Source: Rhododendron vialii (lineage: Eukaryota; Streptophyta; Magnoliopsida; Ericales; Ericaceae). From it: a stretch of 64,000 nt of DNA. The translations under genes were made by a program, and so were the position numbers. Below, one piece after another: positions 26,441 through 48,400 of the stretch. Every line of letters starts with the position of its first letter. Positions within the stretch are counted from its first letter, which is position 1. The stretch lies in NCBI RefSeq assembly GCF_030253575.1, contig NC_080564.1:7050501-7114500 (forward strand). The letters are read 5' to 3'. The notes below the pieces were generated by a model. The model was not told the origin of the DNA. It saw only the letters and a program-made list of their open reading frames with translations, and did no database searches.

Positions 26441-28327
26441 ATGGCCACATCAGTGACCCAAGACGTAATTGAGCCAGATGAACGTAAACTAAGAACAAGT
26501 TCTGTTGGAAAATCAAGTTCTCCAAACACTGGACAAAGTAAGTTTCTTGATTACCTAAGGGCTTCTAGGGGAAAAGAGATGCCTCCAAACAATGGACAAA
26601 ATATCTCCCCACGTCATACCAGAGCTTCTACTGGTTCTCTCCGTGAAATGGTTAATACAGCAAGGCACTCTACTGGAAAAGCAAGTTCTCCGAAAAGTGG
26701 AGAAAGTCTTGATCCCCATTATCTCAGAGCTTCTTCTGGTTCTTGCCATGATTTCTGCAAGTACGGAAGGAAACATGAAGTTGAACTGAAGGCGAGGCGT
26801 CTTTTTCCCAAAAGAGCCATAAAACTGCCATCTGAGAGGGAGAATCCCACCATTGTAGTTGTTTCAGCTGAGAGAAAGATGACAGCGGTGGTCAAGGTCA
26901 AGCCCAAGCCTTCACCAGTTTCCAAAGCACTTTCCGCTGATTCCCCCAGTGTCATCAAGCAGGAAGTTTCATCGCTATCAAACAAAGTCAAAATGTCTTC
27001 GAAACAAGCTTCATCAAATGAGAAGGAAATAGCAAAAGATGGGAAGAAAATTGTTTCTGCAAAAAAGGCTCCCGTGAAACCTAAAGCCACAATGTCCAAG
27101 CCATCAACTTCCCCTGGTACTTCAGGTGGTTTGAATAGTAGAAAAGACAGTGAAATCAAGGGAGCCAAAAAGACAGGGACCTCTATAGCAGCTTTGAAGA
27201 AAGTAGTTGCTACCCCCAAGGCTTCACTTTTCCCTAAACCTTCTTACAATGGAGCTGTGATCTTAAATGTCAAAAAACACAAAAGCCCGAAATCTTCGTC
27301 TCCTCTGAAGGACCAGAACAGGGTTAGGAAAACTGAACCCAATCAATCAAACAATGAGAAGGTCTCAGAGAAAACCTTACATGTTATAAAGGTTGAAACT
27401 GAGAATGAAGTTCTTGAATGTGCTCAAAATGGTAGTACCCTTCATTCTCCTCTATCTCCAGAATTGTCATTGGCCAAGTCTTCCTCACTCCCGAAATCTC
27501 CAGCTTTGTCATCTCACGAGGAAGAAGATCAAGAGGAGTCAGAATATACTGATAGTAAAGTGGATGAAACAGATGAATCCATCTCAGAGAGCACTGAAAC
27601 AGTTAACTTGAACAAAGTAGAAACTCCAGAAGGAAATGGCAAGAGGACACCAGGAAAGGGTAGAAAAGTGGGTATTTCTGGCGATAAAGATTCTTCAGCT
27701 GCGAAACAGAAGTTCAGGAGGGGGAAGGTGGTTGAGGTTAAATCTGAGAATGATGGTCCGAGGAGGCTCAGATTCAGGCGGGGAAGAGTCTTGGGGCAAA
27801 ACCCGGATACCAAATCAGATGTCGTAAAAAGAAGCTTTGCAAAGAAAGAAGTTGAAGGTGATACAAATGGTACCCTCCCCGGTTTAAAAGGGAATAACAA
27901 GAGGACGCCGGGAAAGGGTAAAGTGGGTATTTCTGTTGATTGTGAACCGTCCAAACTGAAGTTCAGGAGGGGAATGGTGGTTGACCCTCAGTCAGAGAAT
28001 GGCACTCCTAGGAGGCTCAGATTCAGGAGGGGATTAGTCTTGGGGAGAAGCCAAGATAGCAAATCCGATGTTGGGAAAACAGGCTCTAAAAGGAGAGGAA
28101 CTGAGAGTGATGCAAATGGTACTGAACCTGGTTCTGAAAAGGTTGTTTTGAGGCATCAAGATGTGCAGGGAAAGAAAGATGCTCAGGGGTTGTTTAATAA
28201 TGTGATTGAGGAGACGGCGAGTAAGCTTGTTGAAAGCAGGAAGAGTAAGGTTAAGGCCTTGGTGGGTGCTTTTGAAACAGTGATCTCCCTACAAGAGAGT
28301 AAACCTTCAACGCAAACTGTCCCTTGA
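26441..28327 (+). CDS. Plant calmodulin-binding domain protein
   Basis: Uninterrupted 628-residue coding region. The C-terminus (about 575-620: NNVIEETASKLVESRKSKVK, then ALVGAFETVISLQ) is the plant CaM-binding domain (PF07839 type), a basic amphipathic helix that binds calmodulin in a Ca2+-dependent way in characterised relatives. The N-terminus carries the family's LRAS-type repeats (DYLRASRG at 38-44, HTRASTGS at 59-66, YLRASSGSCHDFCKYGRKH at 94-112). The middle is a low-complexity Lys/Ser-rich region with a Glu-rich patch (about 365-400). Two similar modules, each PGKG.KVGIS..., KFRRG.VV and RRLRFRRG.VLG (about 400-450 and 485-535), look like an internal duplication. It is predicted mostly disordered and possibly nuclear or microtubule-associated. 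Role unknown. Intact. ATG chosen because it opens the frame directly after the leader exon. Confidence 0.85.
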   Translation: MATSVTQDVIEPDERKLRTSSVGKSSSPNTGQSKFLDYLRASRGKEMPPNNGQNISPRHTRASTGSLREMVNTARHSTGKASSPKSGESLDPHYLRASSGSCHDFCKYGRKHEVELKARRLFPKRAIKLPSERENPTIVVVSAERKMTAVVKVKPKPSPVSKALSADSPSVIKQEVSSLSNKVKMSSKQASSNEKEIAKDGKKIVSAKKAPVKPKATMSKPSTSPGTSGGLNSRKDSEIKGAKKTGTSIAALKKVVATPKASLFPKPSYNGAVILNVKKHKSPKSSSPLKDQNRVRKTEPNQSNNEKVSEKTLHVIKVETENEVLECAQNGSTLHSPLSPELSLAKSSSLPKSPALSSHEEEDQEESEYTDSKVDETDESISESTETVNLNKVETPEGNGKRTPGKGRKVGISGDKDSSAAKQKFRRGKVVEVKSENDGPRRLRFRRGRVLGQNPDTKSDVVKRSFAKKEVEGDTNGTLPGLKGNNKRTPGKGKVGISVDCEPSKLKFRRGMVVDPQSENGTPRRLRFRRGLVLGRSQDSKSDVGKTGSKRRGTESDANGTEPGSEKVVLRHQDVQGKKDAQGLFNNVIEETASKLVESRKSKVKALVGAFETVISLQESKPSTQTVP

Positions 28328-30240: not shown

Positions 30241-32446
30241 ATACATAGAACCAAATCCCGTCCCCCTTTCTTCCACTCCCCATTCCTGTAAATCGCTGGA
30301 ATCAAGCAGAGCAGTTCATCATCCGTACTTTCTTCCTGAACGAAAATACCCCTATGGAGTAAGAGGATTTTCCAGCATTTCTTGCATGTTTCTTGGTAAT
30401 TTCTTACTTTCTTGCTCTGAAATCTGCCCCTGCAAAACCCCCTAACCCCTGTTCTGTTTTACTGGATTATCTGTTTATTATACTGGGTTGAGGTGAGAAA
30501 TTAGGGTTTTAATTGCCAGTGATTCACGACCTGGGCCTTCTTCAGTTGTATATCTGGGAGGTGGATAAATAGTTGTGCAAATTGTTAGTTACTTTCATGT
30601 TAGTGCTGATTATGATAGTAAAGTGTTCTGTTTTTTTTTTTTTTTTTTTTGGGGGGGGGGTTTGATTTTGTGGAGATTTGGGTTTAGTAAACTGCTGATT
30701 AGTGGGATCAGCTTGTTGCTACTTATTCAAGTTTTGATACTTGGAAACTGAACAAAGGGTGGATCTTGGATTCAGGGACGGAGCCAGGATTTTGGTATCG
30801 GAGGGCAGATTTCGACAAAAAAAAAAATGCTAGTGATACGAACATGATATTGTGAAGTTCCGTGCTCATTTTTTTTAAGTGGGAAAAATATATTAGAATG
30901 CAAAACTAAATTTGCACATGAAAAATTGAACAAATATTGTCGAGTCTGAAGAAATATTGGAAAATGACAGATGAATTGTATATTACATATCAACTTCACA
31001 TATTTATATTGGTCTCTTCCTAATTTTAATTCAGTATCCTCTTATTTGGCCACCCCTACCCTATGCATGGCTCCTTCCCTGCTTGGATTGTGTTTTCGTA
31101 GAACCATTGGTTATACAGGTTTAGCCAATTGTTTTGTGGATCTTTAACTGTTGAGGTTACTGAAAGGCATAAGAGGGATAAATTATCTGCTCGAAGGTGT
31201 TTACCAACATAATAGCAAGAAAGTGATCTAATTTGTTATCAATGTATCATATGAATTACGAATTAATGTTGGTGGTTTATATTCATCGTCTACCGGTGTT
31301 GGATGTTGGACCCCAAGTGTGATTTGGTTTATGGTATGGTGTATTGAAGCGGTAGATTGTATTATTAACGGTGTAGATTCTGACTTCACCGCTTGTACGC
31401 CACTGTTTACGAGGTCATAGTTATTGGACGCTGTAGGTGTAGCACTCTTACTTGTTAACAAATTGGACAGATTGTAAACTATTTGACTATCACACTGCCA
31501 CGTGCCAATGGAGTAGAACGAACCCTTATAGATTAGCAGAAACATATCCGCGACGTAACATCCATCCTTGGAATTTAAAGCTTAAAGTTCATGTGTTAGT
31601 TCAATTATCATATGACTGATTTGTTAGACTTTGTTTGAACCAACTATATTTGAAGCCTTAAGGTGACAATATCGTGCATGCTACTCTCTCAAATCTCAAG
31701 TATAGTAGATAAAAATAAATGTTCAAAACTCAACGATAATTTTTCTTTCAAAGTTTTAGCATTAAGTTTTGAAGGAAGTACCTCCTCCAAATGGTGATGC
31801 TATCAAAGTTACTTGAACTGTTAGTTGTAGAATTGTTGTTTGTCTGCTGATGTTTTGAAATTGTAAGTTGGATAAGTCTCTGACTCTGCTTTGGTGATCA
31901 TCCCTGACACATTGAAACAACTGTGTTCTTCTCGCTGAAGATGTGTTCTGAACTTCCAATCCCTGGTATATTTTACAGTTCGTATTAAACCAGAAACAGC
32001 CCCGGTATCACTAATATAGGGCTTCATATGACCGAGTCAATAAACCGCTGTACGGAAGATATCCAAAAGCTCATACTGTGTACTTGGCTTCAATGTGAAA
32101 CACAACATTCATTTAAGCTATGTCTGGTTTTCTAAATATTGTCCTCTGATTTTAAAAGAGCTGGGAGGATTGTAATGAAATAAGGTACCGGTGTGCTCTT
32201 GGAGCTTACGTACCTCTTATACTGAAAGTGACACTTGATTAAGATTGAGTACGCATCATCATTCATTTAAGCAGTACAAACCCAACTTCTTGATTAGCAT
32301 CGAATGAGATAAACCAACTAACCAAGTCCATCAGTCTGAAAAGTTCCTGTGTCTACTTAAATTTCCTGTGGACTTTGTGTTGTATATTTCTGTTACAGAA
32401 GCAGCTATTGAGATATTAACTCGTCTGATGTTCCTAGGTGGAAACA
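30241..32446 (+). other. Leader of the EID1-like F-box gene: 5'UTR exon, 2-kb intron, alternative acceptors
   Basis: A non-coding exon likely ends at 30395 (ATGTTTCTTG|GTAATT). Candidate acceptors are 32398 (TTTCTGTTACAG) and 32437 (GATGTTCCTAG). The intron holds a T20G10 run (30631-30660) and AT-rich DNA with weak unidentified ORFs. Inferred from splice consensus only. Confidence 0.5.
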
Positions 32447-33193
32447 ATGATCATATCAAAGCAGTTTCGTTGCATACACTCAGCCAGCTGTGCATGCACT
32501 AAAGGGCACCTGAACGAGCATGTAATCTACCTTATTTTTCAGCACTTGAACTGGAATCCAAAGTTCATAGCCGCCTTTTCTTGTGCATGCAAATGGTTTG
32601 AAGATGTTGCTAAAAGAGTACTCTGGAAGGAGTTTTGCAAGGCAAGAGCTCCTAAGATGATGCTTGATTTGCAGTCTAATGGGAGTCACAGTGTTGATGG
32701 AAACTGGAGGGCTCTTGGGAAGCTACTCATTTACTGTTCTGGATGCACCAAGGGTGGCTTGTTCAATAATATTCATATTCCTGGCCACTTCGTTTATAGG
32801 ACCCGATTTTCTAGGACTTCTGGGAAAAGCTTTCTTTTACCGCAATGCAGAACAGATGTTTTGTACGTGTCTGATCCTTGTGAACATCTTGACCAAGGGG
32901 AAGAGGGAGATGTGGGTTTTTTCCGTGGAGTTTTCAAGTCATTTGCAGTGTCAAAGGTTCGGAAAATGCTTATAACAAGGCGGGCAAAGCTTCATCCAAC
33001 AGAGGTGTGTCCCTATTGTAAAGCAAAGCTGTGGAGCATGCTGCAAGCGAAAATGGTGCCACAGAGTGCTAGCTGTAGGTTAGGTGCTTATGAAGATTGT
33101 ATCGAGTATTACGTGTGCCTCAACGGGCATGTGCTTGGGATTTGCACTCTCTTGCCCCTGTCTGACTCAGAAGAGGCATCTGAGTTGGAGTGA
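32447..33193 (+). CDS. EDL3: EID1-like F-box protein (EDL3-type)
   Basis: 248 residues from the ATG at 32447 (MIISKQFRC). The open frame continues 9 bases upstream but only to a GTG, which is not a plausible plant start. An F-box-like region lies at about 20-64 (HLNEHVIYLIFQHLNWNPKF, then CACKWFEDVAKRVLWKEFC). The rest matches the EID1-like family: RAPKMMLDLQ, HSVDGNWRALGKLLIYCSGC, RTRFSRTSGKSFLLPQC, DPCEHLDQGEEGDVGFFRG, HPTEVCPYCKAKLW, YEDCIEYYVCLNGHVLGIC and the acidic end SDSEEASELE. Such proteins join SCF ubiquitin ligases; EDL3 in Arabidopsis acts in ABA signalling, flowering and the clock. Cys pairs (CSGC, CPYC) suggest a metal site. Intact, single coding exon. The choice of EDL3 over a close paralogue is by memory of the family. 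Confidence 0.85.
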   Translation: MIISKQFRCIHSASCACTKGHLNEHVIYLIFQHLNWNPKFIAAFSCACKWFEDVAKRVLWKEFCKARAPKMMLDLQSNGSHSVDGNWRALGKLLIYCSGCTKGGLFNNIHIPGHFVYRTRFSRTSGKSFLLPQCRTDVLYVSDPCEHLDQGEEGDVGFFRGVFKSFAVSKVRKMLITRRAKLHPTEVCPYCKAKLWSMLQAKMVPQSASCRLGAYEDCIEYYVCLNGHVLGICTLLPLSDSEEASELE

Positions 33194-35347: not shown

Positions 35348-35935
35348 CTACTGAGTTTGTGAAAGCGCTTCACAGTTTTCTGCTGCAGAAGTATCTGAAT
35401 CAGGTTCTAATCTCTTTAAGACTAATTTCTGCTGGGGAAGTTGGCCATCAGAAGATGCCATAACTTCTGTATCTATTAGCACAGTGTCTTCTTCCTTGAA
35501 CTCGCCTCTCAAGATGCCCTTTGCAAGTTCATTTTCAATGTACTGCTGGATCACTTGCTTCACCGATCTAGCACCATAATTGGGGTCATACCCAAGTTCT
35601 CCAAGGAATTGAACATCAGCATCTGTTACTTGGATTTTAATCTTTCGATCAGCTAGCCTCTCCTGCACTCGTTCGAACTGGAGTACACAGGCAAATTCCA
35701 GCTGAAATAAAAGAAAACAATGGGTGGCTACGAATTCTCCAAAGATACAGTGAAAACTCAAACAGATTGCTTCCACAGTTCCACTCCATTTTAGGGAGAC
35801 AGAAACTAGGCTAGTTAGGCATTTCAAAATTGGTCGTAGATCGCCCAATCTATCTGGACACAAAAATGTAGGAGTATTGGTCAATACACCCATGCATTAT
35901 ATTCAGAGGGTTACCCAACCCAAACTTGTGTGCAA

Positions 35936-36029
35936 GAGAACCCATACCCAAAACAAGGTGCTTTCACTCACGAAACGAAGGAGAGAACCCATACCCAAAA
36001 CAAGGTGCTTTCACTCATGAAACGAAGGA
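35936..36029. repeat. 47-bp tandem duplication in a ClpB pseudogene intron
   Basis: Copies 35936-35982 and 35983-36029 (GAGAACCCATACCCAAAACA, then AGGTGCTTTCACTCA(C/T)GAAACGAAGGA) are near-identical. Confidence 0.9.
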
Positions 36030-36904
36030 AAATACACTGAGAACCCACAGGTCAGATGCACATAATTTTGAGATATTTGGAACTAGTACTGCTACAGGAA
36101 TATGGTTTTTTTCCTAAACTTGGGGGGTGGCGATCGCCCCCACTCAATTTCTGCCCCCAGTCCGTCCTTGGTTAACTTTGGCTGCAGCCCCAGAATCGTT
36201 CACTACACGGGGGATGGGATATAGTTGGGAAGGGAACTATCACCTTCCACGTCCTACTATGCCCTGGAATATACTTATGTAGCCAAAGCACTATAAACCT
36301 TTCCCTATAAAAAACGCACGAGACAGTACAAATGCTATTATTGTTATTATTATTATTTTTTTTTTTTGCACTCCTAGATTTTTAGCAATCAAGCCAGCAG
36401 TCAAGAGCAACCCGCGGTACCTACCTGTAACCTGACAATTTGGTTTATCTCCTCGCGGTTCAGGGGCTTGAAAACAATATACTCATCAACTTGGTTAATG
36501 AACTGAGGACGGAATACTGATCTTGCTGCCTCCAACACCCTCTGCTTGATAGTCCCATAGGCCTGTTCCTTCGGTAACTTCTGGTCATACATATTAAGTA
36601 TGTATTGCGAGCCAACATTCGAAGTCATAATGATGATAGTGTTGGTGAAACTAACAGTGCGACCATGTGAGTCAGTCACCCTTCCATCGTCCAGAATTTG
36701 AAGCAACACATTAAACACATCAGAATGGGCTTTCTCTATCTCATCAAACAAGATAACTGAATACGGCCTCCTTCTAACTTTCTCTGTCAGCGGTCCACCT
36801 TCCTCATACCCAACGTAACCAGGAGGGGCCCCAATCAATCTTGAAACTGCGTGTCTTTCCATGTACTCACTCATGTCTATACGTATAAGAGCTTCTTCGG
36901 TGTT

Positions 36905-36942
36905 GAACAAGTAGGAAGCTAGTGAACAAGTAGGAAGCTAGT
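36905..36942 (-). other. 19-bp frameshifting tandem duplication in ClpB exon 10
   Basis: GAACAAGTAGGAAGCTAGT occurs twice head to tail (plus strand). On the coding strand this duplicates the codons around LASYLF and throws the downstream NBD2 out of frame. Both frames are otherwise conserved on either side, which marks it as an indel and not an intron. Confidence 0.93.
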
Positions 36943-39900
36943 GCCTTCGCTAGCTCTGTCTTTCCAACAGCTGTAGGCAAGGAACAAAATTTCCATTTGT
37001 TTCTGTCGAGACAGTCCAAAAGTTTCCATATTCTAAGAGCCTGAAACAAAGCACTAGCAGAATAACGAAATTTCAGTCTCTCGTATGAAAGACGGAAGAA
37101 TATAGCAGAGAAACATAGCAACAAAAAAGTTGTGTCAATGCGGATTCAGATTTATTCGATAGCTTCTGTTTCATACTAACATTTTCTTTCTGATTTTATA
37201 CTTGTTTGCTTTTAAAAACCAGTGGATCAATCAATGACAATAACTATGATTGGTCATCAATCATCAGGCTTTTGTGCACTCAGTTCATGTTTGTAAACAT
37301 CTCTAGTTCTTTCAATTTCCAATTCCCTCTTTTGACCATTTCCCTCTCTACGTTATCCGAAACAATAAACCGAAATGCAATTTTGATCCTTGCCTGTAGG
37401 ACCCATGAACATAAAACTAGCAATAGGACGGTGAGGATCTGAGAGACCTGCTCGAGATCGCTGGATAGCCTCGGCGACGGATTTCACAGCCGGTTCTTGG
37501 CCCACAACACGCTTATGCAGCTCTTCCTCCAAATGTCACAGTTTTCCCTCTCAGATTGCTTTAGCTTGGAAACAGGAATGCCAGTCCATTTACTGACTAT
37601 TTCAGCAATATCGTCTGCAGTAACTTCTTCTCTGAGCAAGGATTTCCCAGATCTCGCGTGCTCCTCCAATTCCTTCTGTGCAGCTTCAAGTTGACGTTGC
37701 AAAGAGGTCAATGTTCCATACTTAAGTTCTGCAGCACGATTAAGATCGTATTCTCGTTCGGCCTGTTGAATCTCAAGATTTACCCTGTCAATCTGTGCAA
37801 AAGAAATGATCAAAATAAAATCTGTACAAAAGAGAGAGCATTTGTCAGTAATGGACAGTGCTTCTCCGAGCGCTCTCTTCCTTCTGTTTGGGATGTCTAA
37901 AAAGTCTAGCTTTTTTGCTTTCTGGCTATTTGCCACAAAAGCTAAGCTGTCTGGAACATTCAAACTCAAGCTTTTGGAAGAAAGAAAGAAAAAAAAAAGA
38001 GGCTAAGGTTCTAAAAAAGGCCCAAAAAAGTTGCTTTTTTCGCTTGCCCAAGCGAAACCTTAACATTGTTCGCCAACTTTTCTGGGTTCTGGCTGTGTCC
38101 AGATGATTTTAACTCTGAACTCATCATAAACCACATAAAATCAGTTGCATGCTAAAGATAAGAGGGCACATTGCAATTGTCCCCATACACTTTAAACACG
38201 AGAATAGAGAATATAGTGAAGAGGAAAACTGAGACTAACAAGAAAAAGACTGGCAAACCTCTTCTTTGATCAACTGTATGCGTGTCATGACAGTTTTTTC
38301 GCACTCCCACTGCTTGGTGAGCTGTGCTTGTTTCTCTTTCAATAAAGCCAACTCTGCCTCAATGCTATTCAACCTATCTTTGGAGGCTTTGTCTGTTTCA
38401 TTCATTAGAGAGAGCCTCTCCATCTCCAGCTTTAAGATTAACCGATTTATCTCATCAAGGGCAGTAGGCGTTGAGGTGATTTCCATTTTCAGCTTAGCAG
38501 CTGCTTCATCCACTAGGTCGATAGCTGCAGTTGGAATGAGAACAAGCATAACGATTAGTAAGAGTCTCCTAAGTAGAATAAGATAATATCACTAGTAATT
38601 GTCTTGATAGTGGCATGCCTTGCCTAACGGAAGTCACACCAGATGGCAATTCCAGCAAAATGATATCCCTATAGCCAATTAGGCTGTCATTATGTCAAGT
38701 TTATTTAGGCGTTTGTATTTCATGTAGCCCCTCATCCCTCAATATTGGTCCAACTTGGGAAATCTGACTGTGGAGACAAAACAATAGCACTTTAAATTCT
38801 AACTTTCCAAAATACCCTTCAGTTGCCCATTGTGATTTGTGATAACGCAATCATTAGATTCTCAAATTTGTCCATTGTGGACAAAATGGGAATGATACCA
38901 AGTTTTTTCAAAGTGACAAACATTATGGGACATGCTAAAATGGAATTCTGGGTAACATAAAGGGCAGAAGGAGTATACCTTTGTCAGGCAAAAAACGGCC
39001 ACTGATATAACGATCTGAGAGAACTGCCGCCGCAACAAGAGCACTGTCAGAAATACGGACTCCATGATGCAGCTCATATCTTTCACGCAACCCATGGAGT
39101 ATTGAGATTGTGTCTTCTACTGAAGGTTGATCAACAAAAACTTGCTGGAAACGGCGTTCCAATGCTGGATCCTTCTCTATATATTTACGGTATTCGTACA
39201 CTGTCGTTGCACCAATACATCTCAACTCTCCGCGACCAAGCATGGGCTTCAAGAGATTGCCAGCATCCATTGCACCATCAGTAGCACCTGACCCAGAAGT
39301 CAACAGACTATTCATTTTCATCTCATGAACCATGACAGTGTTAAGTTACCAATTGTCCCAAAAGCTTAAGCAATTAGAAAATGGGCCCAACATCAAGGTA
39401 TATAACACCCTCCCCCACGTGCAACCTGTCTTGCACATGGAGATACAAACCTTCATATATTGCAAAAGATTGAAAAGGGGAGAAGCATAATGCAAACGGG
39501 GAACAAATGCAGACAAAGAGACATGAACCCAAGAAATCTCACAACCTGAGCAAAGAGGTTCAGCTCCTGAGGGATGTTCCAGACTTGATGACAGCTTAAG
39601 CTGTTCAGAAATGGGCCTAACAAAGTATATCAAGCTATCTAACAGACAACAACCTTATCCCAAAGTAAAAGGAATCAACCAGGTCCAGAACCGAAATTTG
39701 TATTCAGTGAAATGATCAACATATTCATGAACCAAGGGGAAAGTACTTCAAAGATATTATAGACAACTCCGCACCCAAACAACAACAAACAATATCCATG
39801 AATTCCCCCTCAGGCCTCAACTTTAAAAAAGAAATAAACTATCAAGCAAGTACCTGCCCCAACAACTGTGTGGATTTCATCGATGAAAAGAATAATTTGA

Positions 39901-40143
39901 CCAGCTGATTCTTTTACTTCCTTTAGCACAGCCTTCAGATGATCTTCAAATTCTCCTCTATATTTTGCCCCAGCAATGAGTGCATCCGTATCAAGGGATA
40001 TCAAGTTGAAACATAAAGTGGATTATCTAAACACCAAGATTATCGCACAGTTATTTCTCAGCAGAACTTGATGAAATAGTGCTAAATTAGCTACTCACCC
40101 TTCGGTTCAGTAATGCCTGAGGTACATCCCCTAGCACAATTCT

Positions 40144-40146
40144 CTA
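40144..40146 (-). other. Nonsense codon (TAG) in ClpB exon 5
   Basis: The exon reads EGLA-stop-RIVLGDVPQALLNRR on the coding strand, where ClpB proteins have LAQRIVQGDVPQAL. A CAG to TAG change explains it. Splice sites and phase on both sides of this 55-base exon are intact. Confidence 0.92.
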
Positions 40147-43100
40147 GGCAAGCCTACCCAAGAGGAATAGTGAGATCTATAAGAAAGATATCATAAAAGG
40201 AAATATTTTGTTCTATACTAGCCAACATAAGGAAAAAATCAACCTCATATACCGTTCAAAGCACCCACACCCAGCTAAGATGTGACTAATCAAAGTAGTA
40301 CCACAAGAAATTAAAACAAGAAAGGTCACTCCGTGAAGAACTTTCTGCTTAGTCTCAGCTCATATTTGAATACTTGTACTCACTATTTCCCATTTAAAAA
40401 GTTGGTCGATGATCTTTGCAGCAAGAAGAATTGAGCATAGATCATCAACCTAATAAGTCACCAACTGAAGTCAAGTCATAAACAAAGAAGAGTGCCTAGA
40501 ACATTGTCTCCTGACTCACTCTCCTCTACAACATTTCTGTGCCTCAGTGGAACAGAGGTTACCCTTCAACAATTGCAGTTTTCCCAACCCCTGGCTCACC
40601 AATTAGCACAGGATAGTTCTTAGTTCTCCGGCAGAGAATCTGGATACATCTGCGTATTTCGTCATCTCTTCCTATAACTGGATCAAGCTTTCCTTCTCTT
40701 GCCATAGCTGTCAAATCATTGCCATATTTCTCCAGTGCTTCATACTTCCCTTCAGCGTCTGTACGAGAATTATGAAGACTTCCCCAATAATGATAGTGCA
40801 CAGTATTTTTGGACTGGCCAAACTGAAGGAAATGGTCCACTAATTGAAAAAGGAACTCAACATGATAATAACGCAAGTTCCTTGATGTTAAAATGTACTT
40901 AAACCTGGCATCAAGTAAACACAAACCAGGTCAATAGTAACAGCTAAAAAAGACGACCTCTATCACCTTGATCATTGGCTGTTTGCCGTCCCCTTATAGC
41001 CTGTATGGCATTTCTCAACGTATTCAGGGAAATTTGGAAATCATTAAACAGTTGCTTCCCAAATCTTTTGTCTTCTGTAAAACCAAGCACCAAATGGTCA
41101 ACTGACACAAAGGAATCACCGTACTCTTTCTTGTATTCTCTAGCTTGCCGTATCAGTGCTTCAAAATCTCGCCCTAACACTGAACCACCCGGCTCACTGT
41201 GAACCTGGAGGAATTGAACAGATGTGTGGACATGGAATTATTAGAAACTAACATATAGTTGGATTGGACAGACTCGTTTTTAACAACGGTATACTGATTG
41301 AGTGATCATTATTATGTTTAACCTCTTCATGCTCCTCTGACCTCAGAGCACCAATGAACAAATTGACTTTATGTTGAATTACTACTTTAGATAATACCCA
41401 TGTGTGTACAGAATAACATGTCATGATATTTAAATAAACTGCATTTACAATCCTCAAACTTTTTGAGGGAATATATAATAAATTCGAGGCCATTATTTCC
41501 CATTTTGCCCCAACTTTTTCCCACGTCCAAATGCATTTTTATTGCTATTTAAATGAACATCATTTATCGGCCATCTCAAAATGGAAAGAATGACCACGAA
41601 TAACCTTTACCAGCAAGAAATAGAAAAGTGCCCCACAAGAAGAAAAACATCATTCTTAATGAAATTCTTCGAATAACGGTGTCACCTTTGGTTGGCATTG
41701 GATGAACTTGTCAGTAGCTTCTAGGAGACGGGTATTGTCAACACCAGCCTTGGAGAAGATACGGCGAGCAAGGCCATTCTTCTGCTCCAGAAGGGCCTTC
41801 ATCAAATGTTCCGTCTCCACTATCCGATGCTTGTTCTCTTTTGTCACTTCTGGTGCAGACACAATACCTTGCCAAGCCATATCCGTGAACTCTTGTTGAG
41901 TAATCTGTAACAAAGCCAAACCAAGTCACCACACCTTCTTCCTTCTGTTTTTTGGGATAAAAGTTCCGAGTCCGTACACCTAAAATATCCATCAAAAAAG
42001 TAAGACATGGTTCACAAGCTCCATTTGTTTATTCCACAGAATAATGGAGCTAAACTGGCCAAGATGAACTAGGTTATTGTTCGTCCAGATAATGGTCGAC
42101 TACCAATTATAGGTCGAAGAGACTCAGACATACACAAACACAGAAGAGAAAAACACCACCTGTTCCATAATGTCTTTCAGATTGGAGGAAACTGAGACGT
42201 AACTTTACAATTTGACTTACCCAAAAGAACTTTACAATTTGACAAATTATTTCGCTTCCATTAAAAGCAAAACTTTGTTTTTAAGCTCACCAATATTGAC
42301 CTTTCCCTTCCTCGACGTTTTCCAATCATGTCTTGAGGATCTCCAAAATGATTACTGTGTGACTAAATCAAGGACGATTAGTAATTAGAGATGGCTAAGA
42401 AACACAGAAGTGTTGGACACTAACCCATTGGACACGCTGAAGCCAAAACATGTATTGGGAGGCCCCTCAAATCCTCTCTACCGAAAAGTCTGTGTACCCA
42501 TGTATTGGTGTGTTTTTGGCCGTTGGATTATGTAGAAATTTTGAGGGATAAAAAATATTTAACTTGATCTGAGAGCCAGAAATACACTGTAACAGTGGTA
42601 TAGAAAGGACTTGAACTCGTTGGGAGGGACACGTAAGGAGATCGATATAATACTGGTGGAGCCAGAATTTGGATAGAGGGTGATGCTCGATGGGAGTTCA
42701 CTAGAATTGTTGCATGTTGTTTGTAAAAACACGAAGAGAAAGGTTGAGTGCAAAGCCAAGCTATGTCCTACACTTCGTAGGTCCAACTCTCTTGTGAGTC
42801 TGTGACTTATACTGAAAGTCCTGGAGATATATATTATTTTTTTGATTTGAACCATTCATTTTTTACCATCACATACTGGTAAATACCTGATCGACTTCCA
42901 TTAGTGTAATTTTTTTAACCAGAGGTGGCACGTGCCACACCGCCCTCCAGTCCCACACCACACAGCTCCGCCCCCGAGATGTAACTCAAAAATGTCCTGG
43001 GAGAGGGCCAAGATTGCCAAGGATACTCCAAAACAGAGGATCTTGTTTTTCCGTTTTCGTACTTCTATTTTTTTTTTCAAATTGGTAAGATACAGTTTTA

Positions 43101-43428
43101 CATAAAGAGCCAAAATCCAGAATTTAACAAATTGGAGTCTGCAAAACATCGAACTACAAACAGATAAGCTAGTGATTTACCCTCTCACTTGTAGCATCGC
43201 ACCGAACACGAAACGACGCAACTCCTCCTATCTGACCGCTCAGCTCTTCTCGCGATAAACACATCGCTCTCCTTCTTCTTATTCTCCGTCTTCAATCCCA
43301 GCGAATTTAGGGTTTTGAAAGCTACGGCGCGATTGCCGTATAGTTTTACCGAGAGCGGTGGCTGAGAGAAGTTAAAATTTGAAGGAGGAAGAACACGAAG
43401 GCCCGGAAAACGACGTCGTGGAAGACAT

Positions 43429-43718
43429 CTTTCACTCTGCGACCAGGCCAAAAGAGTTACCGGCGACCGGTGGTCTGAGAATTTACCGGCGGGCGGTGGG
43501 TGAAGTGGAATTTGAGGAAACGGTGGGGCTTTCGGTGGGAATTTTGAAAAAGTTGGGGGGAGTGTTCGAGAACAAAGGAAGGGCGGGAGATTTGTGCTTG
43601 GGTGCGCACGTGGCTTGCATGAGGTTAGGATACTACGATGACGAGGATGATGATTATACAGGGGATGGGATTTTAGGTTTGTTCGGGGGTCCCTTTCTGA
43701 GTACTGCTATCGGTACCG
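43429..43718. other. Region upstream of the ClpB pseudogene; former promoter/leader
   Basis: GC-richer than the surroundings. The plus-strand ORF that begins near 43379 has no similarity to a known family and overlaps the transit-peptide exon, so it is not called. Probably the old promoter and 5'UTR of the ClpB copy. Confidence 0.4.
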
Positions 43719-44071
43719 ATGGTACCGTAGAGAAAATGCTGACGGCCGTCTTCGGCCACCGGACGGCTGATCCGAGCCGTCCAAAAATTTTAAAAAACAA
43801 AACCGAGTGGACCTACGTGAGAATCAATGGCATCCGAGGTGTGTAAGGTACTTGATCCGAGCACCCATTTTTCGTCCATATATGTATATACGTGTATATA
43901 CACGAAAAAAGGGTACTCGGATCAAGTACCTTACACACCTCGGATGCCATTGATTCTCGTTAAGGCCCATTCGGTTTTATTTTTTAAACTTTTTGGACGG
44001 CTCGGATCGGCCGTCCGGTGGCCGGAGACGGACGTCCAGTGGCCGTCGGTGCATTTTCCCTACGGTACCAA
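43719..44071. mobile_element. Long fold-back MITE (353 bp)
   Basis: The ends GGTACCGTAGAGAAAATGC and (from the right) GGTACCGTAGGGAAAATGC open two arms of about 160 bases. The arms share CGGACGGCTGATCCGAGCCG-type, GGCATCCGAGGTGTGTAAGG and TACTTGATCCGAG blocks and meet at a loop TATATGTATATACGTGTATA. Same family as 57997-58353 and 24547-24725. It lies upstream of the ClpB pseudogene. Confidence 0.85.
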
Positions 44072-44293
44072 TAGGATTTTCGCTTTTTAAACTTATCTTT
44101 GGTGAATGCCAAATAAAAAGTTTCTGCAACTGAGGTAGGTTTTGCTAAAGTTTCGCTAAAAAAAATAAGTACTTAAAAAATAAGAATGTTAACAAAACGA
44201 GATCTAAGATTTAACACATCTTTCTTTTAAAATGGCTTTCATTAGAACTATTCAATGAAGGAGGCAGTAGGAGTGAAGGAGGTGGAAGAAAGT

Positions 44294-45471: not shown

Positions 45472-48400
45472 CTACAACTCCAAAATGTGGCAATTCCTAA
45501 TAAAATCATTGGAGTAGTTAATGTACTTGGTCCAAAAAGGACGGAGATGCTCAAAGCCTATCTGAAGCCATGGTTTTAATTGGCCATTGTAGTGGATAAC
45601 AGCAGCCTTTTTCACACTCTCAATGTTGGTTTTGTTCTGGTAGCCCAGACCTAGCAAATGCCAAGACGGGTCGATTGCTTGAACATGACCTTTGAATGCA
45701 ACCAAAGCTGGTGGTAAAGTACCCAGCTTCCACATAGTCATGTTTGACTTCAGATTCTGCAAAGATCGAGTACCATTAAGAAATCAGAGCTTATGAGTAT
45801 GTTCATTACATAATTATTCATGACAAAAATCTAGGTACTCATCAATAGTAAAAGTCCATAGAGGAAAATTGCAATGAAACTTTGAAGAGGAAAACTTTCA
45901 ACATGATTCATAATCAGAATACAGTGACTTCGCCAAAATCATGATGGGCATGTGCTTATTTGTCTAGCTAAATGAGCTGCAGGCCACAGTGTCTACCACA
46001 GGCGCCCATAAAATGATCATTGGAGAGCTAGGCGCCTATAAAATGATCATGGAGAGCGACTGTAAGAAAATGATTTTTTCATTAGACTCTATTGAAAATT
46101 TGAAACAACGTGACACAATTAGAAAAGGACAGGAATTACAAAAATAAGAGTTAAATTATGACAAAAAAACATCCTCTGTCCGGTTCTCAGACTTGAGCCA
46201 AAATAGGAGAATAGAGGACAAACATATCTGCAGAAGTCTGACAGAAATCCAAATTACAAGAGATTACCTCCTTCAACCAGGTGTGATAAGTGTCTCTTAT
46301 GTTTGAATTCCTCCATGCACGTAAATCAAAAACATTCATCCCATAAGCCCATGCGCATTCATCAGGGTTCAAATTCTTTTCTATGAGAGGATGTGAGAAA
46401 TTGAAGTAGTTCCTGAACCTCTTAGACATTACCCACTCATCTTCACCTTTGCAGGTTTCTACAGCACCATTAACCTTTCCACCAAGGTCAATTTCCCAGA
46501 GTGGAGAGAGGTCACGCTGAATTACAACATCATCGTCTAAAAAAACCACTTTGTCAAGATTTGGAAATAGCTGCATAGCACAAATAGGAAACATTGTCAG
46601 CACCTTCTCCCAAAGAGGGCGGTGGTTCAGAGTGGGCGTCTGGGAGACAATATATAAAAGTTCATTGTAAGCTTCTCTACACTACAATTTAGGTCAGGAG
46701 GCCCATTGCTTGGAGGTGCTAATGTCCAAGGTGGGACAAGCTCTAACAAATTAGCCGACATTGTGAATTGAAATTGTGTTTCATCAAAAACGTGAATTGA
46801 ATTGCAAGGGTTCAGTCGAATCTTCAAGCTATACGAATTTCGGAAATATATGCATTTAGATTCAAAACAATGTAAAATTTTATTTTGAATGATAATGTAG
46901 TGATGTAGTCTATAGATAAGAAGCTTGCTTATGGGGTAAGATATGTGGTCTGAGGAATTGAGCTCCACCATGACTTATAATCCTATATAACAGTTGTGTT
47001 ACGACATAGGAGTATGAATTAGAGGAAACAAGAATCCAAATCATAAATTTTGAAAACTAAGCATTCAGATAGGATATCATACTCAACAACATTCATAACT
47101 TGTTATACAGCTATGGTTAAGAAAAGTAATAATTTATCATACAAACATTAAGTCCATCTGATTTGGCTTGTATCCGAATAACTAATGTTTATTTTGTCAC
47201 AATGGATAGATTTACATCCCATAAAGCATGGATACATATTCACAGTAGGAAATGGTGTAGCCGTGTAGGTAGATCATATTAGCATTCAGAAAATAAGTTG
47301 TCCAATGAGAGGTCATGTGCAAATAGCCGGAACGAGAGCGTAGGATGGAGGGAGGGAGAGGAAGAGAGCTTTCTTCAACCACAATTTAATCCTGGTTTGA
47401 AACATGAATCCTCAAATACACTGGCTTTCAATCAAGCACGGCAAGGATTTTATTTCTTATTGCTTCGAAAATGACACAGACGACAGTGTATTGAAATAAG
47501 ACAGAAAATCACCTCTGGCAAATAAATGCGAAGATGGTTAAGCAGTGAAATGTACTTTGGGCTTCTAGCCTGCAATTTTGAAGCAAAAATCTGTGGAGTC
47601 GTGTCACTGAGGTTAGCCCCAGCAATATGATTCCCATGGTAGTAGTTCCGAATAGCATAATGGTTTTCTACAGCTTCTAGCACTGGTATATTCTCTCTTG
47701 TCAACCAGTCAAACTGATGAACACCTTTTACTTCAACAATAGCTGGAGAGATAGGATTCAGGGCAAACCACGAATGCATGCCCGCATATGTTTTCTTGTC
47801 AGTTATGACATGGAAAACTATCTTTTCCGGTTTTAGAGATGACTGTACAGTAGACGTGACTACAACTGAAGCTGCTAGAATGTTGTCGGATGACAAAACA
47901 AAGTGATAGTATGAGTTATCGGAAAGCGAAGGGAGTAGTTCGGGTGAAGGTAACTGCCGGCGGGCGTGAGCATTAGAGGAATACTCATCCGTCAAACGCA
48001 GAGAGAGGCAGTGGATCCCTTTAGGAACGGCACTTGAAGCAAAATGTTTGTTCATTAGTTCTGCGAATTTTGACTCCCGGATCTCCCTTTCAGATCTCTC
48101 CATCTGTGCAAGACCAAATACACTTTAGCTGAAATAACAGGTGCAAAACATAGTAGAGCTGACTTAGTCCAGAGGAGAATAATAAAAAAATGCATTGTTT
48201 TAACATTTTGCTCTCTTCTGCACATGTGGAGTGATATGCCCTCAAACAAGTCATGCTGAGGAAACTATCCCAATGGATATGGTCTCCACATATTGCAAGA
48301 ACCAAAATTTGGTTACATGGTTTATATAAACAGGTAGACAGAAGTTTGCATTTCCTCCTAACAAAATTTGGAAAGTTGGGTGCATAGTTCTTGAATACAT

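What the first reader, a model, noticed from the sequence alone, without database searches (positions are those of the whole stretch)
35348..43428. A chloroplast ClpB3-type disaggregase gene decayed in place
All exons of a ClpB3-like gene can be followed in order with introns, yet at least five independent lesions block it (TAG, lost acceptor, 1-base deletion, 19-bp duplication, broken first exon). ClpB3 is needed for chloroplast development in Arabidopsis, so either a second functional copy exists elsewhere or this is a recent duplicate decaying. Most exon residues remain conserved, which points to recent loss.
Basis: partly seen in the sequence, partly recalled or inferred. Interest (0 to 1): 0.75.

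Follow-up and report, generated by a model that had tools for sequence, protein, structure and literature searches.

The report
Decayed twin of a chloroplast chaperone
In this plant genome one of two copies of a chloroplast protein-rescue gene, apparently kept since an ancient genome doubling, has broken down late while its twin on another chromosome stays intact; this is an ordinary kind of gene loss, with one odd detail, a mobile element lodged in the gene exactly where it could be spliced out like an intron.

Summary
Minus strand 43428-35348 carries a ClpB3-type gene that cannot encode a disaggregase. The five listed lesions are present (exon 1 least certain in detail). Two more were found: a second nonsense codon, and a 415-bp hAT-like MITE taken for an intron. 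The same genome holds an intact 977-codon ClpB3 on C10, in a collinear block with three of the same neighbours. dS between the copies is 0.69; the neighbour pairs give 0.61, 0.64 and 0.69, matching Ks 0.61-0.67 published for a Rhododendron genome duplication. So this is an old homeolog, not a recent duplicate. Mechanism: neutral decay after selection relaxed, C10 covering the function (inferred). Boldest open reading: the MITE, whose ends and target duplication form exact GC-AG splice sites, was a real intron before the gene died.

The parts
43181..43428 (-). exon 1 remnant: start codon and transit-peptide region, frame broken (TAA at 43374-43372)
41686..41904 (-). exon 2, N domain, open
40967..41204 (-). 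exon 3, open
40563..40758 (-). exon 4, Walker A of the first ATPase domain, open
40099..40153 (-). exon 5 with TAG at 40146-40144
39854..40004 (-). exon 6; acceptor AG lost (AC at 40006-40005)
38979..39287 (-). exon 7, open
38259..38524 (-). exon 8, open
37393..37792 (-). 5' part of exon 9 with 1-base loss (about 37546-37542) and TGA (37538-37536)
36978..37392 (.). 415-bp hAT-like MITE inserted in the exon; target duplication 36970-36977 / 37393-37400
36425..36977 (-).
35348..35677 (-). last exon with normal stop TAG 35350-35348
26441..28327 (+). calmodulin-binding-domain reading frame (Pfam CaM_binding), block anchor
32438..33193 (+). reading frame that recalls EID1-like F-box proteins (name recalled; no Pfam match), block anchor
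45472..48124 (-). glycosyltransferase family 8 gene (GAUT-like, that name recalled), block anchor

Best explanation
A duplicated, unprocessed pseudogene: the C8 homeolog of ClpB3, made by an ancient whole-genome duplication. It stayed under purifying selection for most of the time since, was then released because the C10 homeolog supplies the chloroplast disaggregase, and has collected nonsense, splice-site, frameshift and duplication lesions. Shown: intact twin, collinear block, similar dS, lesions. Inferred: that C10 covers the function, that no product is made, that the block comes from a whole-genome rather than a segmental duplication, and the absolute age.
For: Intact 977-codon C10 gene with GT-AG at its nine introns; C8, C10 and a ClpB4-like C7 copy are the best three of 24 matches with the window's exon-9 3' part and the best three of 15 with exon 7; collinear DNA anchors in order and orientation; dS 0.691 against 0.605, 0.639, 0.689 for three neighbour pairs; published Ks 0.61-0.67; differences by codon position 80/57/284 over 886 codons; amino-acid changes polarised 34 on the window branch to 18 (C7 outgroup) or 15 (cyanobacteria) on C10; share of time as pseudogene 0.074 and 0.092 from these, 0.054 from the two stops; window copy departs at 5 of 133 near-invariant columns, C10 at 0 of 133; of 6 in-frame sets of skipped internal exons that avoid exons 5, 6 and 9, the smallest loses 443 codons, including most of the second ATPase domain.
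Against: Two of four polarisations do not separate the branches (21 to 14, chi2 1.4; 15 to 8, chi2 2.1), so the rate excess is modest. Five of 133 is close to what the bacterial proteins themselves show (mean 2.7, with one row at 63 of 123 that is probably a poor reading frame). dN/dS 0.11 for the pair is no higher than for the glycosyltransferase pair (0.110). No transcript data.
Confidence: 0.93

Rival explanations
1. Recent tandem or segmental duplicate that is decaying.
For: High exon conservation: 757 of 886 aligned codons give the same residue.
Against: dS 0.69, like the flanking pairs; collinear block on another chromosome.
Confidence: 0.02
2. Functional gene with assembly errors.
For: The 1-base loss lies next to an A run.
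Against: Nonsense substitutions, a splice-site substitution and a 19-bp duplication are not typical read errors; neighbouring frames examined are open.
Confidence: 0.02
3. The copy still makes a truncated protein: N domain and start of the first ATPase domain, begun at an internal ATG in exon 1.
For: Exons 2-4 are open and an ATG in exon 1 is in frame with them.
Against: dN/dS of exons 2-4 (0.154) is not lower than that of exons 5-8 (0.129) and 9-11 (0.084); 8 of 10 changes polarised with cyanobacteria fall on the window branch there.
Confidence: 0.04

Closest known systems
Homeolog lost by fractionation after whole-genome duplication (Ad-beta of Ericales)
   Same: Collinear block, retained neighbours, one intact and one broken copy, dS at the published peak.
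   Different: Nearly full-length and late; PMC7775554 (title and start of abstract in a search listing only) reports that excision dominates pseudogenization in plant fractionation.
ClpB3 / ClpB-P plastid disaggregase
   Same: N domain, two ATPase domains, remnant of a leader, cyanobacteria-like middle domain.
   Different: Cannot be translated; the second-domain Walker A glycine and near-invariant arginines are replaced.
Introners (transposon-born introns)
   Same: Element with TSD and TIR whose boundaries give splice sites that would remove it exactly (PMC9860276 passages).
   Different: Single case, GC-AG, no transcript; the passages of PMC9860276 that I saw report none found in land plants.

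Membership tests
ClpB3 (plastid ClpB) | ClpB domain order | tested here: met
ClpB3 (plastid ClpB) | closer to the ClpB3 copy than to the ClpB4-like copy | tested here: met
   86% against 68% over 160 residues; exon 7 alone does not separate them (90% and 91%). Which copy is ClpB3 and which ClpB4 is recalled.
ClpB3 (plastid ClpB) | plastid import | not testable with these tools
   leader present only as a broken remnant
Pseudogene | several independent disabling lesions relative to an intact homologue | tested here: met
Pseudogene | no functional product | not testable with these tools
   no transcript or protein data
WGD homeolog | collinear neighbours and same dS | tested here: met
   only one block was compared, not the whole genome
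hAT MITE | TIR beginning CAAGG and 8-bp target duplication (features recalled) | tested here: met
   TIR 28 nt, 79% complementary; 7 of 8 target bases equal; sibling L121 has 8 of 8. Clear flank repeats were not seen in most of the 11 other places; no transposase was examined.
Introner-type intron | spliced out of the transcript | not testable with these tools
   only boundaries seen

The most novel reading that the evidence does not exclude
The hAT-like MITE in exon 9 became a working GC-AG intron of the C8 ClpB3 while the gene was still functional, making it a transposon-born intron in a land plant, preserved in a gene that died later for other reasons.
Probability: 0.25. Interest if true: 0.55.

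Novelty: new member of a known kind. Interest (0 to 1): 0.33.

Why it matters
It is a roughly dated example of late fractionation: two copies of an important chloroplast chaperone were apparently both selected for most of the time since duplication before one was let go. If the inserted element was a spliced intron, related species with an intact C8 copy would allow intron birth from a transposon to be tested directly in land plants.

Tried and rejected
Rejected: recent duplicate (dS); assembly error (type of lesions, open neighbours); retrocopy (introns kept); exon skipping as rescue (6 in-frame sets, smallest loss 443 codons); an ancestral intron lost from C10 (C7 also lacks it, and the element has dispersed relatives). 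Paper searches with no paper: two or more of three Arabidopsis locus numbers, ClpB3 with whole-genome duplication and Hsp100, the assembly size. ClpB3 with chloroplast and pseudogene gave two papers, which I did not open. Species: not determined; 13 contigs and 532.6 Mb recall Rhododendron, but R. williamsianum (532.1 Mb in 11,985 scaffolds) and R. simsii (528.6 Mb) do not match exactly.

Rows dropped: 71 of 80 bacterial loci gave an open frame of 840 residues or more and were used. The element tree used 11 sequences, the window copy and 10 of the 11 other matches; L123 was left out. Two codons read as stops were left out of dN/dS (884 of 886). The glycosyltransferase pair is 416 codons from three exon pieces and includes a few intron-edge codons. 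C7 departures (5 of 116) include alignment-edge residues. The anchor near 59.6 kb matches C10 in inverted orientation and was not counted as collinear.

Full report
WHAT IS THERE. The window is plant nuclear DNA, C8:7050501-7114500 of a 532.6-Mb, 13-contig assembly. The finding lies on the minus strand. ClpB profile TIGR03346 matches 6 of 6 exon frames given, in order, and two cyanobacterial ClpB proteins align through the N domain, first ATPase domain, middle domain and second ATPase domain. Exon borders were read.

LESIONS. Exon 1 has an ATG at 43428 and a TAA after 18 codons, and the parts that resemble the C10 leader lie in different frames; this exon aligns poorly, so its single indels are not assigned. 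Exon 5 has TAG for CAG at 40146-40144. The exon 6 acceptor is AAC, CAG in C10. One base is missing near 37546-37542. A 19-bp tandem duplication covers 36942-36905. I add a TGA for TTA at 37538-37536 and a transposon insertion. The Walker A glycine next to the insertion reads alanine. Of 133 near-invariant columns the window copy departs at 5: N281Y, R431H, R845Q, P905S and R908Q in C10 numbering. R845 is the second-domain arginine finger by recall.

THE FALSE INTRON. What looks like an intron inside exon 9 is absent in C10 (contiguous coding sequence) and in the C7 ClpB4-like gene. The stretch 36978-37392 has terminal inverted repeats (28 nt, 79% complementary) and is flanked by GCTGTAGG and CCTGTAGG (7 of 8 equal). 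The genome search found 11 other places. In the best local alignment the similarity begins at element base 1 in 8 of 11 and at base 2 in 3 of 11, and it reaches the last base, 415, in 3 of 11. L121 has an identical 8-bp flank on both sides; clear flank repeats were not seen in most of the others. This fits a non-autonomous hAT element; no transposase was examined. On the gene's strand the first flank plus the element's first base gives CAG|GCAAGG and the second flank gives CCTACAG|, so a GC-AG splice would remove exactly the insert and one flank copy.

THE INTACT TWIN. Searching the genome with the window's 160-residue exon-9 3' part gives C8 itself, C10 (86%) and C7 (68%) as the best three of 24 matches; exon 7 gives C8, C10 (90%) and C7 (91%) as the best three of 15. 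The C10 gene reads through as 977 codons with GT-AG introns. It departs at 0 of 133 columns that are at least 97% constant in 71 bacterial ClpB proteins; the window copy departs at 5 of 133; the bacterial rows themselves depart at 2.7 on average, a mean raised by one row of 63 of 123.

ORIGIN. The calmodulin-binding gene, the F-box-like reading frame (no Pfam match; name recalled), ClpB3 and the glycosyltransferase family 8 gene follow in the same order and orientation in the window and at C10:4.94-4.99 Mb. The F-box-like protein has C10 as its best other match (89%, next 45%, 4 matches in all). NG86 dS is 0.691 for ClpB3 and 0.605, 0.639 and 0.689 for the three neighbour pairs. Published Ks for the more recent Rhododendron duplication is 0.61 and 0.67 (PMC6907397, section 24 read) and about 0.65, dated about 78 Mya (PMC7572368, passages). 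If the plant is of that lineage, which I infer and did not test, this is that duplication. By recall the Arabidopsis ClpB3 gene has neighbours of the same kinds; a search for their locus numbers found no paper, so this stays recalled.

WHEN IT DIED. dN/dS between the copies is 0.111 (0.086-0.139) and differences by codon position are 80, 57 and 284, so both copies were constrained for most of their history; the glycosyltransferase pair has about the same ratio (0.110). Polarised changes are 34 window to 18 C10 (C7 outgroup, chi2 4.9), 34 to 15 (cyanobacteria, 7.4), 21 to 14 (bacterial consensus, 1.4) and 15 to 8 (C7 and bacteria agreeing, 2.1). A simple branch calculation from the first two gives the share of time since duplication spent as a pseudogene: 0.074 (0.009-0.140) and 0.092 (0.028-0.158). 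The two stop codons give 0.054 (0.007-0.195). With 78 My this is roughly 4-7 My, with wide limits. Relaxed selection short of neutrality would change these figures.

MECHANISM. In Arabidopsis, ClpB3 is proposed to reactivate misfolded or aggregated stromal enzyme delivered by J20 and Hsp70, and clpb3 mutants have a dramatic phenotype (PMC4729485, passages). With an intact C10 copy, loss of the C8 copy would be tolerated; this is inferred. Exon phases show that only large deletions avoid the lesions: of 6 in-frame sets of skipped internal exons, the smallest loses 443 codons, including most of the second ATPase domain. A short product of exons 1-4 is possible but shows no extra constraint.

THE OPEN LEAD. 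The element's relatives form a nearly star-like tree (one model, no support values), and the window copy's terminal branch is 0.19 substitutions per site, the shortest of 11. Neutral divergence per lineage since the duplication is about 0.345 (half of dS), and the gene's time as a pseudogene corresponds to about 0.02-0.03, at most about 0.055 by the intervals of the branch calculation and 0.067 by that of the stops. If the element inserted during its family's burst, it sat in a coding exon long before the gene died, and only splicing would have kept the gene working. Against this, the element may have moved recently from an old copy not sampled here, alignments at pairwise distances of 0.43-0.94 are rough, and there are no transcripts. 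The Introner survey passages I saw report none found in land plants (PMC9860276). Splicing of maize Ds elements from coding exons is recalled.

VERDICT. The feature is real, the loss explanation is ordinary, and the insertion is worth a comparative check.

Noticed in passing
window 43715-44085: A foldback MITE (142-nt arms, 89% complementary) about 290 bp upstream of the ClpB3 start; 81 match rows from 40 scored of 2233 candidates, best other copy 91% identical.
   Followed up: partly
window 27433-27557 and C10:4941711-4942532: The C10 copy of the calmodulin-binding gene holds a tandemly repeated segment of about 120 bp to which the window copy's single stretch matches several times.
   Followed up: no
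G000:C11:35661009-35661101 and C3:14163402-14163560: Short fragments like ClpB exon 7 (87% over 31 and 55% over 54 residues), perhaps gene scraps.
   Followed up: no
G000:C8:30.68 and 31.13 Mb, C12:30.99 and 31.23 Mb: Other ClpB/Hsp100-like gene pairs lie in parallel on C8 and C12, suggesting another homeologous block.
   Followed up: no
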